The translations under genes were made by a program, and so were the position numbers. From assembly GCF_004745575.1 (NCBI RefSeq), contig NZ_RPEM01000009.1, positions 1 to 64,000 on the forward strand: a stretch of DNA of 64,000 nt. The letters are read 5' to 3'. The notes under the pieces are model-generated. The model ran no database searches, was not told the DNA's origin, and saw nothing but the letters and a program-made list of their open reading frames with translations. Position 1 is the first letter of the stretch. The number at the start of each line of letters is the position of its first letter. Source of the DNA: Pseudotabrizicola sediminis. GTDB taxonomy: Bacteria; Pseudomonadota; Alphaproteobacteria; Rhodobacterales; Rhodobacteraceae. Shown one piece after another: positions 60,287-64,000 of the stretch.

Positions 60287-62836
60287 TTAACAACTAGGGT
60301 CGATCAGCGCCAGATGCGCCGCCGCCAACCGCGCCAAGGGAACGCGGTAAGGCGAACAGGACACGTAATCGAACCCTGCTTTCCGACAAAAGGCGATTGA
60401 TTCGGGGTTGCCACCATGTTCACCACAAATGGAAACGGTCAGATCCGGCCGGGTCTTGCGGCCGCGCTCGGCCCCGATCAGCAGCAGTTCGCCCACGCCG
60501 TCCACATCCAGAATATGGAACGGATCTTCGGGGAACACGCCTTGCTGCACATAGGTGTTCATGAACCGCCCAGCGTCATCGCGCGACAGACCATAAGTCA
60601 TCTGCGTCAGGTCATTGGTGCCAAAGGACAGAAACGCCGCATGCTGCGCGATCTCGCCCGCCCGCAGGGCGGCGCGCGGGGTTTCCACCATCACGCCCAG
60701 TTTGTAGTCGAAATCCATCCCCGCCCTGACCCGCACGGCGGCTGCCACCGCATCGACGCGGGTTTTCACCAGTTCCACCTCACGCCGGGCGCTGACCAGC
60801 GGGATCATGATTTCCGGCACCACCGCAGCACCGCGCCGGGCCACCTCGACCGTGGCCTCAAAGATCGCCTGCGCCTGCATGTCATAAATCTCGGGCAGCA
60901 CCACCCCCAGCCGCACGCCGCGCATGCCCAGCATCGGGTTGAATTCGGTCAGCGCCTCGGCCCGCCGGGTGACTTCCGACAAGGGTTTGTCCAACGCCTC
61001 GGCCAGTTCGCGCAGACCCTCGCGGCTATGGGGCAGAAATTCGTGCAACGGCGGGTCGAACAGGCGGATACAGACCGGCAAACCCGCCATGATTTCAAAC
61101 AGTTGCACAAAGTCGGCTCGCTGCATCGGCAACAGCCGCGCCAAAGCCGCGGCGCGGTCTTTCGATGTGTCGGCAAAGATCATCTCGCGCATGGCGACCA
61201 GACGGTCTTCTTCAAAGAACATATGCTCGGTCCGGCACAGTCCGATGCCTTGCGCCGCAAACTGCCGTGCGGTGGCGGCATCAGCGGGGGTGTCGGCATT
61301 GGCGCGCACGCCGATGTCGCGGAACTCATCCGCCCAGCCTAGCAGGGTCTGGAAATGGCTGTCGAGCGCCGGGGCCAGCATATCAACCGCGCCCGCCAGC
61401 ACCTGCCCCGTCGTACCATCGACCGTGATCACATCGCCTTCGCCGAAACTGCGGCCTTCTGCATGGATGCGCTTGTTCTTGCCGTCCAGCCGCAGATCGG
61501 CCCCCACCACGCAGGGCAGGCCCAGGCCCCGCGCGATCACCGCCGCATGGCTGGTGACGCCGCCACGTTCGGTCAGCACGCCGGCACTGGAATGCATGCC
61601 GCGAATATCCTCGGGCGCGGTTTCGCGCCGCACCAGAATGCAAGGCTCGCCCCGCGCCGCACTGGCCTGTGCCGCATGGCTGGAAAACACGATCCGCCCC
61701 ACCGCAGCCCCCGGGCTGGCGGCAATGCCGCGTGCGATCACATCGCGCGCCCCGCGCGGGTCGACCTGCGGGTGCAAGAGTTCCGACAGCGCGCGCGGTT
61801 CCACCCGCAGCACGGCCTCTTCGCGCGGAATCACCCCGTCTTCGGCCAAGGCCACCGCAATGCGCAACCCCGCCCGGGCCGAGCGCTGCACCTTGATCGC
61901 ATCCAGCACCGCCAGACGGCCATCCTCGATGGTGAACTCGATCTGCATCTCTTCGCGCAACCGCATCCGGCAGGCAGCCCCGTGGCGGATCAGATCTTTG
62001 ATCAGATCGGGCGCGATTTCCTCCAGCGAAGGCCCGCGCGCATCGCGGGTCAGGAACATCGCCTGCGACGCGTTCAGCGCATCCCGCCCCTGCCCCTGCC
62101 CCAGATAGCGCCCGGTGATCTGCGGCTCGCCGGTCACCGGATCGACGAACTGCACCACGCCGGACCCGGAAATGCCCTGCCCCAGCCCCTGCGCCATCGC
62201 CTGCACCACCAGCCCCAAGGGCGCATCCACCGGCGCGCCCTTGGCCTGCCGCAGCAGGCGGGCGGTCGTGCCCTCCCACGCGCGGGCCATCGACCGCAGC
62301 ACTTCGGACAGTTGTTTTGCCGGGTCTTGCGGAAACTCCTCATCCATTTCGGTGGCATAAACCTGCAACGCTGCCGCAACCGCCTCGGGCGAAGGCGCAG
62401 TGGCGGCGAACATGTCGGGGTCCAGCCGGGCCACATGGGTGGCGTAGGATTGCACAAAGCGCAGATAGATCGCATCCGCCGCCTGCTGGCCGTGCCGCTC
62501 TGCCAGCGCCTTGTGCCGCGCGGCGTTCAGCCCGATGTTGAGCACGGTCGCAGGCCCGCCCCAATCGGGGTTTTCAGGGCTGGGCCGGACCGAGATCAGG
62601 GGCGCAGGGCCGAAATGCGCCATGATCGCCGCACAATCGACCGGGGTGCCGGCGGCAATGCCCCGCACGGTCAGCGCGGGCAGAGCCACGGTCTGCGGCA
62701 CCGGCAGGTCCAGCCGCACCAGCCGTTGCAGGCATTTTGCCCGCCAGCCATGCGCCACCCGGTCGATCCGCGCCGTAGGCGTCACCTCGGAAAAGGCGAC
62801 CTGCGGGTCAGCTAAGGGGGCGTCACGTTTCTGCAC
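60287..62836 (-). CDS. PPDK-like PEP-utilising protein with degenerate N-terminus
   Basis: 849 residues with the pyruvate phosphate dikinase layout. The phosphohistidine domain has H430 in RGGVTSHAAVIARG, and the C-terminal PEP domain has C804 in SICGEHGGNPES with RADFVQLFEIMAG and IGLCRTEHMFF. The N-terminal ATP-grasp part is diverged: GGKGANL appears as HGWRAKCL and SVRSGARASM as SVRPSPENPD. It may be a PPDK paralogue with altered nucleotide use. It lies downstream of glyS, an order common in Rhodobacteraceae. Confidence 0.8.
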   Translation of the reverse strand: MQKRDAPLADPQVAFSEVTPTARIDRVAHGWRAKCLQRLVRLDLPVPQTVALPALTVRGIAAGTPVDCAAIMAHFGPAPLISVRPSPENPDWGGPATVLNIGLNAARHKALAERHGQQAADAIYLRFVQSYATHVARLDPDMFAATAPSPEAVAAALQVYATEMDEEFPQDPAKQLSEVLRSMARAWEGTTARLLRQAKGAPVDAPLGLVVQAMAQGLGQGISGSGVVQFVDPVTGEPQITGRYLGQGQGRDALNASQAMFLTRDARGPSLEEIAPDLIKDLIRHGAACRMRLREEMQIEFTIEDGRLAVLDAIKVQRSARAGLRIAVALAEDGVIPREEAVLRVEPRALSELLHPQVDPRGARDVIARGIAASPGAAVGRIVFSSHAAQASAARGEPCILVRRETAPEDIRGMHSSAGVLTERGGVTSHAAVIARGLGLPCVVGADLRLDGKNKRIHAEGRSFGEGDVITVDGTTGQVLAGAVDMLAPALDSHFQTLLGWADEFRDIGVRANADTPADAATARQFAAQGIGLCRTEHMFFEEDRLVAMREMIFADTSKDRAAALARLLPMQRADFVQLFEIMAGLPVCIRLFDPPLHEFLPHSREGLRELAEALDKPLSEVTRRAEALTEFNPMLGMRGVRLGVVLPEIYDMQAQAIFEATVEVARRGAAVVPEIMIPLVSARREVELVKTRVDAVAAAVRVRAGMDFDYKLGVMVETPRAALRAGEIAQHAAFLSFGTNDLTQMTYGLSRDDAGRFMNTYVQQGVFPEDPFHILDVDGVGELLLIGAERGRKTRPDLTVSICGEHGGNPESIAFCRKAGFDYVSCSPYRVPLARLAAAHLALIDPSC

Positions 62837-63034: not shown

Positions 63035-64000
63035 TCAGCCGTCGAGTCTGGTCAGGTCGGCGACCGACAGGCAAATCGTGCGGATGCGGTGCAGCAGGTT
63101 CAGCCGGTTGCGGCGGACGATCGCGTTGTCGGTGTTGATTTGCGTCGCGGTGAAGAAGGCGTCGATGGGGGCGCGCAGGGCCGCCATGGCCTGCATGGCG
63201 GTTGCGAAGTCTTCTTTTGCCATCGCCGGGGCGATGACCGTTTCCGCTGCGTCGAGGGCGACGAACAGGGCGCGTTCTTCGTCAGTCTCGGCGAATTTCG
63301 GGTCGGCCCCGAAGGAATATTCGACGCCATCCTTCTGTTCGGCTTGGCTCAGGATATTGCTGGCGCGTTTGTAGCCCTGCACGAGGTTCTGGCCGTCTTC
63401 GGTCTGCAACGTGGCCTGCAGCGCGGTGGCGCGCTTGACCAGCAGGGTCAGATCGTCGTTGCCGGGCATGGCGAGGCAGGCGTCGATGACATCGTGGCGG
63501 ATGCCTTGATCCTTGAGGAAAACCTTGAGGCGGTCGTGGAGGAAGCTGAGGAGGTCAGCAGACGAATTCTCAAAAATGGGAAGAAAGCGCGCTTCTGCTT
63601 TGGCATGCTCGTCATCGCTCCACATCGGCACTGAATCACCCGTTAAAAGATACGCAGTGTGTGCCGCGTAGCAGAAGAAGCTATCAATTAAGTCAAAAGC
63701 AGCTTTCTTCTCCGATTCATAATCAGTCTGGTCTTTAAAATATGCTCCTGATCGAGTGTGTTCAAAAAAAACCTCAAATGCCCGATCAGTTCTTAGAACA
63801 AGTGCAAGAGCACCTTTTCTCGGGACACTCTCTACAGCAGCCAATTCATCCTCTCGGCAAGTGGCACTGTCATATTTATCGAGATCGTTGTATATTAATT
63901 TCACATTTGCCGAGAGACAAACGTGTGAATTGATCAGCACTTTAATGAGTTCAGTCCGAACCCCATTCCCCAACACCAACCTCAACACCCCCAACGCCGC
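63035..64000 (-). CDS. glyS: Glycyl-tRNA synthetase beta subunit, C-terminal part (partial)
   Basis: About 322 residues remain; the gene runs off the window. The C-terminal anticodon-binding region is clear: LLSFLHDRLKVFLKDQGIRHDVIDACLAMPGNDDLTLLVKRA, within about 148-190 of the visible part, and NRLNLLHRIRTICLSVADLTRL at the end. Between GVLRLVLGNGVR and LLSFLHDRL there are about 133 residues (63557-63955) of low GC, where family members usually have about 35. This is an in-frame insertion (see findings). The alpha subunit glyQ is outside the window. Confidence 0.9.
   Translation of the reverse strand, partial: AALGVLRLVLGNGVRTELIKVLINSHVCLSANVKLIYNDLDKYDSATCREDELAAVESVPRKGALALVLRTDRAFEVFFEHTRSGAYFKDQTDYESEKKAAFDLIDSFFCYAAHTAYLLTGDSVPMWSDDEHAKAEARFLPIFENSSADLLSFLHDRLKVFLKDQGIRHDVIDACLAMPGNDDLTLLVKRATALQATLQTEDGQNLVQGYKRASNILSQAEQKDGVEYSFGADPKFAETDEERALFVALDAAETVIAPAMAKEDFATAMQAMAALRAPIDAFFTATQINTDNAIVRRNRLNLLHRIRTICLSVADLTRLDG

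What the first reader, a model, noticed from the sequence alone, without database searches (positions are those of the whole stretch)
63557..63955. Low-GC in-frame insertion inside glyS
Between the helical part (GVLRLVLGNGVR) and the anticodon-binding domain (LLSFLHDRLKVFL) of glycyl-tRNA synthetase beta lie about 133 residues where I expect about 35. A hand count of the 399 bases gives about 43% GC (173 of 399), against about 60% or more on each side. The frame is open and the codons look unlike the neighbours. The segment includes LIYNDLDKYDSATC and FKDQTDYESEKKAAFDLIDSFF, matching no domain I know. Either foreign DNA entered an essential gene in frame, or the gene carries a recently acquired extra domain.
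Basis: partly seen in the sequence, partly recalled or inferred. Interest (0 to 1): 0.75.

Follow-up and report, generated by a model that had tools for sequence, protein, structure and literature searches.

The report
Hypervariable swapped domain in GlyS
At one fixed spot inside an essential tRNA-charging enzyme, bacteria of the family Rhodobacteraceae carry one of a very large pool of dissimilar short protein segments, and even close species can have completely different ones, a pattern not expected in a housekeeping enzyme and still without a known cause.

Summary
In detail: 173 of 399 bases are G or C, the frame is open, and GC3 is 0.38-0.39 against 0.80-0.85 in the flanks. It is not a one-off insertion but this genome's allele at a hypervariable locus of the GlyRS beta-subunit gene. 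Of 279 distinct glyS junctions, 65 carry a conserved ~79-aa segment (type C) and 214 something else. The 145 variable segments of 50 aa or more fall into 107 families without detectable similarity to one another (87 singletons); 138 of 145 have GC3 more than 0.15 below their flanks. The rest of GlyS is nearly length-invariant. Of 18 Paracoccus pairs with flanks at least 90% identical in DNA, 17 have dissimilar segments (one pair at 96.2%). Nine of 20 multi-member families span genera. Homologous segments show purifying selection. None of 72 segments scanned matches a known family convincingly; the one cassette family searched in whole genomes rang only inside glyS (3 of 394). Best explanation: small domains replaced by recombination through the conserved glyS flanks, inside the tRNA-acceptor-stem-binding HD domain, perhaps under diversifying selection. 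Repeated replacement is well supported; route and driver are inferred.

The parts
63035..64000 (-). 3' part of glyS (glycyl-tRNA synthetase beta subunit, residues 481-801 and stop); the 5' part lies beyond the window (gene 63038-65440 on contig C86 of the same genome)
   Evidence: Pfam tRNA_synt_2f and NCBIfam TIGR00211
63554..63970 (-). whole variable segment, G491-D629, 139 aa (E. coli GlyS has about 31 aa here)
   Evidence: strong length variation is confined here among 141 full-length GlyS
63956..63977 (-). upstream border GGTGTTGGGGAATGGGGTTCGG (LVLGNGVR); the pattern with up to 2 mismatches matched in 10 of 41 genomes, 9 times at glyS (this genome included) and once elsewhere (G133)
63528..63556 (-). 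downstream border GACCTCCTC..CTTCNTCCACGACCGCCT (DLLxFxHDRL) with the CTC CTC codons typical of variable-type glyS
63077..63376 (-). DALR anticodon-binding domain of GlyS (residues 689-788), not variable in length apart from truncated contigs

Best explanation
The segment is one allele of a hypervariable, interchangeable domain of the GlyRS beta subunit in Rhodobacteraceae. SHOWN: at one fixed position different species carry either a conserved ~79-aa segment or one of very many dissimilar, mostly low-GC in-frame segments (12-158 aa); the rest of the protein is almost length-invariant; whether two genomes share a cassette family hardly depends on how related their flanks are; homologous segments are kept by purifying selection, so they are working protein. 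INFERRED: whole segments are exchanged by homologous recombination with crossovers in the conserved glyS sequence on either side, so a new allele needs no mobile element. INFERRED from the E. coli structure: the segment hangs on the end of helix H19 of the HD domain, which contacts the tRNA-Gly acceptor stem, so it is a permissive position next to a functional surface. INFERRED, weakest step: turnover this fast in an essential enzyme reflects diversifying (rare-allele) selection, for example escape from a phage protein, toxin or inhibitor that attacks GlyRS at this surface.
For: 176 unique junctions from a family-wide sample (64 type C, 112 variable) and 111 from Paracoccus (1 C, 110 V), 279 unique together. 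145 segments of 50 aa or more form 107 families, 87 singletons, Chao1 356. 17 of 18 V-V pairs with flanks >=90% identical (all Paracoccus, 26 genomes, pairs not independent) carry different families, and the sharing rate is 0.5-1.1% in all five flank-identity classes from 60 to 90%. 9 of 20 multi-member families span genera (members, origins). In family A2, Paracoccus L289 is closer to L036 of another genus (55%) than to three Paracoccus members (31-42%). The C label needs 38 changes on the flank tree, at least 17 forced by supported branches. dN/dS 0.12-0.32 in the 8 of 20 listed pairs where it could be computed; pN/pS 0.23-0.57 in the other 12. In 17 close V pairs with different cassettes mismatches rise in the 60 nt upstream of the border (0.13-0.18 against 0.09-0.10 beyond 90 nt), as expected if flank DNA came along. 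The gene next to glyS here (849 aa) aligns in one piece in 58 of 61 Paracoccus genomes.
Against: No recent inter-genus transfer with near-identical cassette DNA was found; cross-genus homologues are at most ~55% identical in the families listed. Cassette and flank identity are correlated within families (rho 0.47 over 83 pairs) and the C label is more clustered on the tree than in any of 500 shuffles (38 changes against a mean of 51.1), so part of the inheritance is vertical. The rise of mismatches next to the border is also seen in the last 30 nt of 21 C-C pairs at >=0.82 identity (0.20 against 0.11-0.17), which weakens it as a recombination footprint, and the downstream side shows no such rise. 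The border-codon association with type V is not significant once phylogeny is controlled (median p 0.125 at D0, 0.5 at D1, 0.125 at N+1). Most computable dS values are above 1.3; only two pairs (L316-L318, L319-L321) have moderate dS. Nothing identifies a selective agent. One genome per species: polymorphism within a species was not seen.
Confidence: 0.55

Rival explanations
1. Neutral permissive site: this loop tolerates any folded or harmless insert, and random insertion, deletion and recombination turn it over without selection for diversity.
For: Of 20 junctions outside the family (picked by me with a preference for long frames) 18 are 16-38 aa, most with GC3 near the flanks (clearly lower in L339 and L348), and two are 59 and 117 aa; five further loci outside the family have 56-81 aa. 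So the site tolerates inserts widely. Short forms are common inside the family too (69 of 279).
Against: Purifying selection on homologous cassettes; families shared across genera; replacement already seen at 4-10% flank divergence; a neutral insert would be expected to shrink back to the short form.
Confidence: 0.28
2. A dedicated mobile element or site-specific recombinase inserts cassettes by recognising the two border sequences.
For: V-type borders share unusual synonymous codons across genera: AAT 42 of 61 against 0.24 gene-wide; CTC 56 of 67 and 60 of 71 against 0.23; similar in Paracoccus. In type C the figures are 19 of 56, 13 of 63 and 15 of 54.
Against: The upstream border matched in 10 of 41 genomes, 9 times at glyS and once elsewhere, and in no viral contig (exact pattern); no direct or inverted repeats of 10 nt or more at the borders here; no recombinase family among 72 cassettes; complementarity of the two borders is no stronger in V than in C; border codons not significant after phylogenetic control.
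Confidence: 0.11
3. A single recent foreign insertion in this genome only.
For: GC3 0.38, ninth lowest of 145 cassettes; no convincing homologue in 394 family genomes, phages, plasmids or viral contigs.
Against: Relatives do not show one empty site but other dissimilar segments: in the own genus 11 of 15 readable junctions are variable with no detectable similarity among them, 4 are type C.
Confidence: 0.03
4. The segment is removed after transcription or skipped in translation (intron, intein or bypassing element), so its sequence does not matter.
For: Dissimilar sequences between constant borders.
Against: Every junction extracted is open and in frame (182, 111; the search for them required one open frame, but only 1 of 183 loci, L149 at a contig end, failed); homologous cassettes show dN/dS 0.12-0.32; no intein or other family found in 72 cassettes.
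Confidence: 0.02

Closest known systems
Flagellin central hypervariable domain (recalled, no call)
   Same: Conserved ends around a middle domain that differs in length and sequence between close strains
   Different: Flagellin is surface-exposed and not essential for growth; GlyS is cytosolic and essential
Rhs / polymorphic-toxin C-terminal displacement (PMC2935791: title and start of abstract seen in the listing; the rest recalled)
   Same: A conserved gene body carries one of many dissimilar variable segments, replaced by recombination
   Different: There the variable part is a C-terminal toxin tip with an immunity gene; here it is an internal segment of a synthetase with no toxin family match, and linked genes were not surveyed
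Inteins and other in-frame elements in conserved genes (recalled)
   Same: In-frame foreign-looking sequence at a fixed site of an essential gene
   Different: No intein or homing-endonuclease family match in 72 cassettes; cassettes dissimilar; length down to 12 aa
Lineage-specific insertion domains of aminoacyl-tRNA synthetases (recalled)
   Same: Extra domain appended to or inserted in a synthetase core
   Different: Those are stable within lineages (recalled); this one differs between species with 4-10% flank divergence

Membership tests
[quoted passage not shown]
   603.8 bits (cut-off 29.2) and 747.2 bits (cut-off 300)
[quoted passage not shown]
   PF05746 at residues 689-788, E 1.6e-9
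[quoted passage not shown]
   Foldseek: 10 hits at E <= 0.001, nine of them chains of GlyRS (7yse, 8ie2, 7xof, 7lu4, 8h1c), the top one (9a71) titled only as an integrative model; TM-score by query length 0.41-0.48, as the low-confidence cassette is included
Intein | splicing or homing-endonuclease family match in the insert | tested here: not met
   no such family among the 72 long cassettes scanned (pfam, ncbifam)
Transposable element or its remnant | terminal inverted repeats or target-site duplication | tested here: inconclusive
   none of 10 nt or more at the borders; shorter duplications not tested
Phage-derived insert | similarity to viral proteins | tested here: not met
   own cassette: none in viral contigs or phages; 72 cassettes: no PHROGs family at E <= 0.01; C-terminal model with the cassette: no BFVD hit at E <= 0.001
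Polymorphic-toxin-like variable locus | segment encodes a toxin with a linked immunity gene | tested here: inconclusive
   no Pfam, NCBIfam or PADLOC family beyond isolated hits at E >= 0.0016 in 72 cassettes; linked genes were not surveyed

The most novel reading that the evidence does not exclude
An essential tRNA synthetase carries a true hypervariable domain: an open pool of hundreds of dissimilar small folded domains held in a bacterial family by rare-allele advantage against an agent that attacks GlyRS, exchanged between species and genera by homologous recombination through the conserved flanks. The persistently low GC3 of cassettes may then reflect their lack of homologous partners, which would exclude them from GC-biased gene conversion, making this locus a natural test of that hypothesis.
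Probability: 0.3. Interest if true: 0.92.

Novelty: new variant of a known kind. Interest (0 to 1): 0.8.

Why it matters
Hypervariable exchangeable domains are usually found on surface structures, toxins and specificity subunits (recalled). Finding one inside an essential cytosolic aminoacyl-tRNA synthetase, at the edge of the tRNA acceptor-stem-binding HD domain, suggests either that something targets this enzyme in a large bacterial family, or that the site tolerates almost any small domain. Either answer is testable and useful: the first points to an unknown GlyRS-directed agent, the second to a natural display site and a source of many orphan folds. The constant-flank, changing-insert design also offers a natural experiment on why GC3 differs between recombining and non-recombining DNA.

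Tried and rejected
Foreign source: the own cassette has no match in viral contigs, phages or plasmids; one other cassette family (A3) has none in viral contigs. GlyS itself: tblastn in phages found 15 records, all under 60% identity, in plasmids 37 records, one of them at 60-80%; the GlyS C-terminal part had no relative in viral contigs. Two weak hits of the own cassette (E 0.0013 and 0.006 per genome, 394 genomes searched) lie in Fur/Zur-like repressor genes beside zinc-transport-like genes (names recalled from the sequences) and are judged chance.

Border hairpin: the borders looked complementary by eye, but duplex energy beats synonymous resampling in type C (58 of 65) at least as often as in long V (103 of 145; short V 61 of 69), so rejected. 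Dispersed border sites: one in 41 genomes, at 2 mismatches. Early idea that type C occurs outside the family: wrong; of 27 loci tested only the same-family L210 fits type C clearly (E 2.2e-25; L351, L341 and L350 score 5e-4 to 6e-3 on short linkers). Structure: the own cassette is predicted helical at low confidence (10-residue blocks mostly pLDDT 48-76), so no fold is claimed; the type-C segment is helical at pLDDT 63-85.

Literature: (licensed PMC library only; two found nothing, the others gave listings of at most 15 out of up to 370 papers); no paper describing this locus was seen in them. Two papers were read as passages only (PMC9908026, PMC8464048).

Rows dropped: 1 of 183 loci gave no junction (L149); 6 of 182 junctions before the family counts (5 duplicates, 1 with a run of N); 8 of 111 Paracoccus rows as duplicates of family rows; 3 of 176 rows too short for the tree; same-family pairs under 45% identity left out of dN/dS (20 listed of the 83 pairs). 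Part of the output was cut (D0 for V of 50 aa or more).

Full report
WHAT IS THERE. The window ends inside glyS on the minus strand. With the rest of the contig the gene is one open frame of 801 aa, a clear GlyRS beta subunit by Pfam and NCBIfam. Both best matches stop at about residue 505, and the DALR anticodon-binding domain matches from 689. The variable stretch is G491-D629, 139 aa, where E. coli has about 31 residues.

NAMES. I call the window's family (f1) Rhodobacteraceae because several of its junctions are identical to named loci of that group, and the genus of G023 Paracoccus because 7 of its junctions are identical to loci whose titles name Paracoccus. NCBI places many of the named relatives in Paracoccaceae or Roseobacteraceae. 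The 80 named loci were not checked one by one for family.

IT IS A LOCUS, NOT AN EVENT. In the own genus 16 of 16 genomes have glyS matches; 15 junctions are readable (L004-L018): 4 carry a conserved 76-78 aa segment and 11 carry other segments of 34-151 aa with no detectable similarity among them, although the N-terminal parts of GlyS are 82-93% identical where aligned separately. Across the family, 191 of 198 genomes gave a glyS match. From 183 loci (genome search, the fetch from genomes and named loci) I extracted 182 junctions, 176 after removing 5 duplicates and one with N. A profile of the conserved ~79-aa segment ('HGVFG' motif, type C; built from 55 of these same junctions) separates 64 junctions from 112 variable ones with a wide gap in E-value (6.8e-10 against 0.005). 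The 72 variable segments of 50 aa or more have median GC3 0.52 against 0.83 in their flanks; 67 of 72 are more than 0.15 lower. For type C it is 9 of 64. In Paracoccus, 120 of 121 genomes matched; of these I examined 111 junctions, 110 variable and 1 type C.

HOW DIVERSE. Together 279 unique junctions: 65 C, 69 short variable, 145 variable of at least 50 aa. Pairwise and iterated profile comparison (E <= 0.001) puts the 145 into 107 families: 87 singletons, 14 pairs, 6 larger; Chao1 is 356. Deeper relationships below that threshold are not excluded. Of the 145, the 72 of the family-wide set were scanned against Pfam, PHROGs, PADLOC and NCBIfam: only isolated hits, E between 0.0016 and 0.01. 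The own cassette stands alone.

SHARP BORDERS AND CONTROLS. In 141 full-length GlyS aligned to the own protein, 25-residue blocks outside residues 501-625 keep their length almost exactly. The exceptions are small indels, the largest at 326-350, 376-425 and 651-675, and truncated C-termini. Blocks inside vary from 0 to 73 residues with 2-9% identity. The 849-aa gene next to glyS in this genome aligns in one piece in 58 of 61 Paracoccus genomes; 3 have split matches. Outside the family I looked at 20 junctions chosen with a preference for long frames: 18 are 16-38 aa, most with GC3 near the flanks, two are 59 and 117 aa; five further loci have 56-81 aa. So a short linker is the likely ancestral state of the class, and the variable locus is mainly, perhaps not only, a Rhodobacteraceae feature.

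TURNOVER AND EXCHANGE. Of 18 pairs of long-variable glyS with at least 90% flank DNA identity (all Paracoccus, 26 genomes, so not independent), 17 carry different families; the closest (L237, L244) has 96.2% identical flanks. The chance that two genomes share a cassette family is 0.5-1.1% in each flank-identity class from 60 to 90% and 1 of 18 above 90%. Nine of 20 multi-member families span genera, including one shared between a species of the own genus (L005) and Paracoccus (L242). In family A2 a Paracoccus cassette (L289) is closest to that of another genus (55% with L036), not to three Paracoccus members (31-42%). On a tree of the flanks without the borders, the C label needs 38 changes, at least 17 forced by supported branches; shuffled labels need 51.1 on average and none of 500 as few as 38, so C is also partly inherited. 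In the 17 close pairs with different cassettes, mismatch density is 0.13-0.18 in the 60 nt upstream of the border against 0.09-0.10 beyond 90 nt, but C-C pairs also rise in the last 30 nt (0.20 against 0.11-0.17) and the downstream side does not rise. Cassette and flank identity correlate within families (rho 0.47, 83 pairs).

FUNCTIONAL PROTEIN. Twenty homologous pairs with at least 45% identity were examined. dN/dS is 0.12-0.32 in the 8 where dS could be estimated (moderate dS, 0.54 and 0.57, in only two of them); in the other 12 synonymous sites are saturated and pN/pS is 0.23-0.57. This is purifying selection, so the segments are translated and useful. Their synonymous divergence is often larger than that of the flanks of the same pair (for example L316-L318: 0.54 against 0.26), as for old allele lineages, though different codon bias may contribute. 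L319-L321 goes the other way (0.57 against 0.84).

BORDER DNA. Long variable-type borders share codons that are rare in the same genes: Asn AAT 42 of 61 (gene-wide 0.24) and 35 of 49 in Paracoccus (0.20); the first two Leu of the downstream border CTC in 56 of 67 and 60 of 71, in Paracoccus 65 of 72 and 66 of 69 (gene-wide 0.23). In type C the same figures are 19 of 56, 13 of 63 and 15 of 54. However, with phylogenetically independent pairs (all V against C) the association has median p 0.125, 0.5 and 0.125 for AAT, second CTC and first CTC, and a codon 12 positions away gives 0.065, so I treat it as suggestive. It fits recombination anchored in these stretches; it does not prove a recognition site. 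The upstream border matched in 10 of 41 genomes, 9 times at glyS.

PLACE IN THE ENZYME. In E. coli the HD domain is residues 341-540 and the ABD starts at 541 (passages of PMC8464048). Loop H18-19 (473-476) and R481/R482 at the start of H19 contact the tRNA acceptor stem and U73, and R531 contacts the stem backbone (passages of PMC9908026). The segment replaces E. coli ~493-523, thus between H19 and the part with R531 (my mapping). A model of the window part has blocks of pLDDT 95-98 after residue 150 (last block 63) and mostly 48-76, helical, in the cassette; the type-C segment is predicted as helices at pLDDT 63-85.

LOW GC. Cassettes in multi-member families (58) have median GC3 0.54, singletons (87) 0.51, p 0.15; cassette GC3 follows flank GC3 only weakly (rho 0.36). 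Since many homologous cassettes have diverged far, low GC3 persists; recency alone does not explain it. A constant supply from low-GC donors or exclusion from GC-biased gene conversion are both open.

VERDICT. Real, and larger than reported: a hypervariable, replaceable segment in an essential tRNA synthetase. Repeated replacement is well supported; homologous recombination as the route is inferred; diversifying selection is plausible but untested. My literature searches (licensed PMC texts only, listings capped) showed no description of it.

Noticed in passing
window 60287-62836: Gene next to glyS: an 849-aa protein that looks like a PEP-utilising enzyme (pyruvate phosphate dikinase / PEP synthase type, by eye); used here only as a length control.
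   Followed up: partly
L001:3019-3492: The 474 bases between glyQ and glyS were not examined.
   Followed up: no
L036, L047, L083, L126, L258, L289, L312: One cassette family (KNW...VWFDDxxAD...GDxRL motif) recurs in at least four genera. A good target for a structure.
   Followed up: partly
L101, L123, L135, L269, L306, L314, L315: A second recurring cassette family with an LGVxxxxLxxxxxxIR pattern (by eye); very divergent (16-38% identity), possibly part of a wider superfamily.
   Followed up: no
L334 (G332), L336 (G214), L212, L213: Long dissimilar segments at the same glyS position in other alphaproteobacterial families, so the hotspot may not be confined to Rhodobacteraceae.
   Followed up: no
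L143, L146, L148 and Paracoccus loci such as L235, L249, L254, L259, L279: A recurring short form of 23 aa ending in ...AD at higher GC3, possibly the vertically inherited minimal linker in Rhodobacter and Paracoccus relatives.
   Followed up: no
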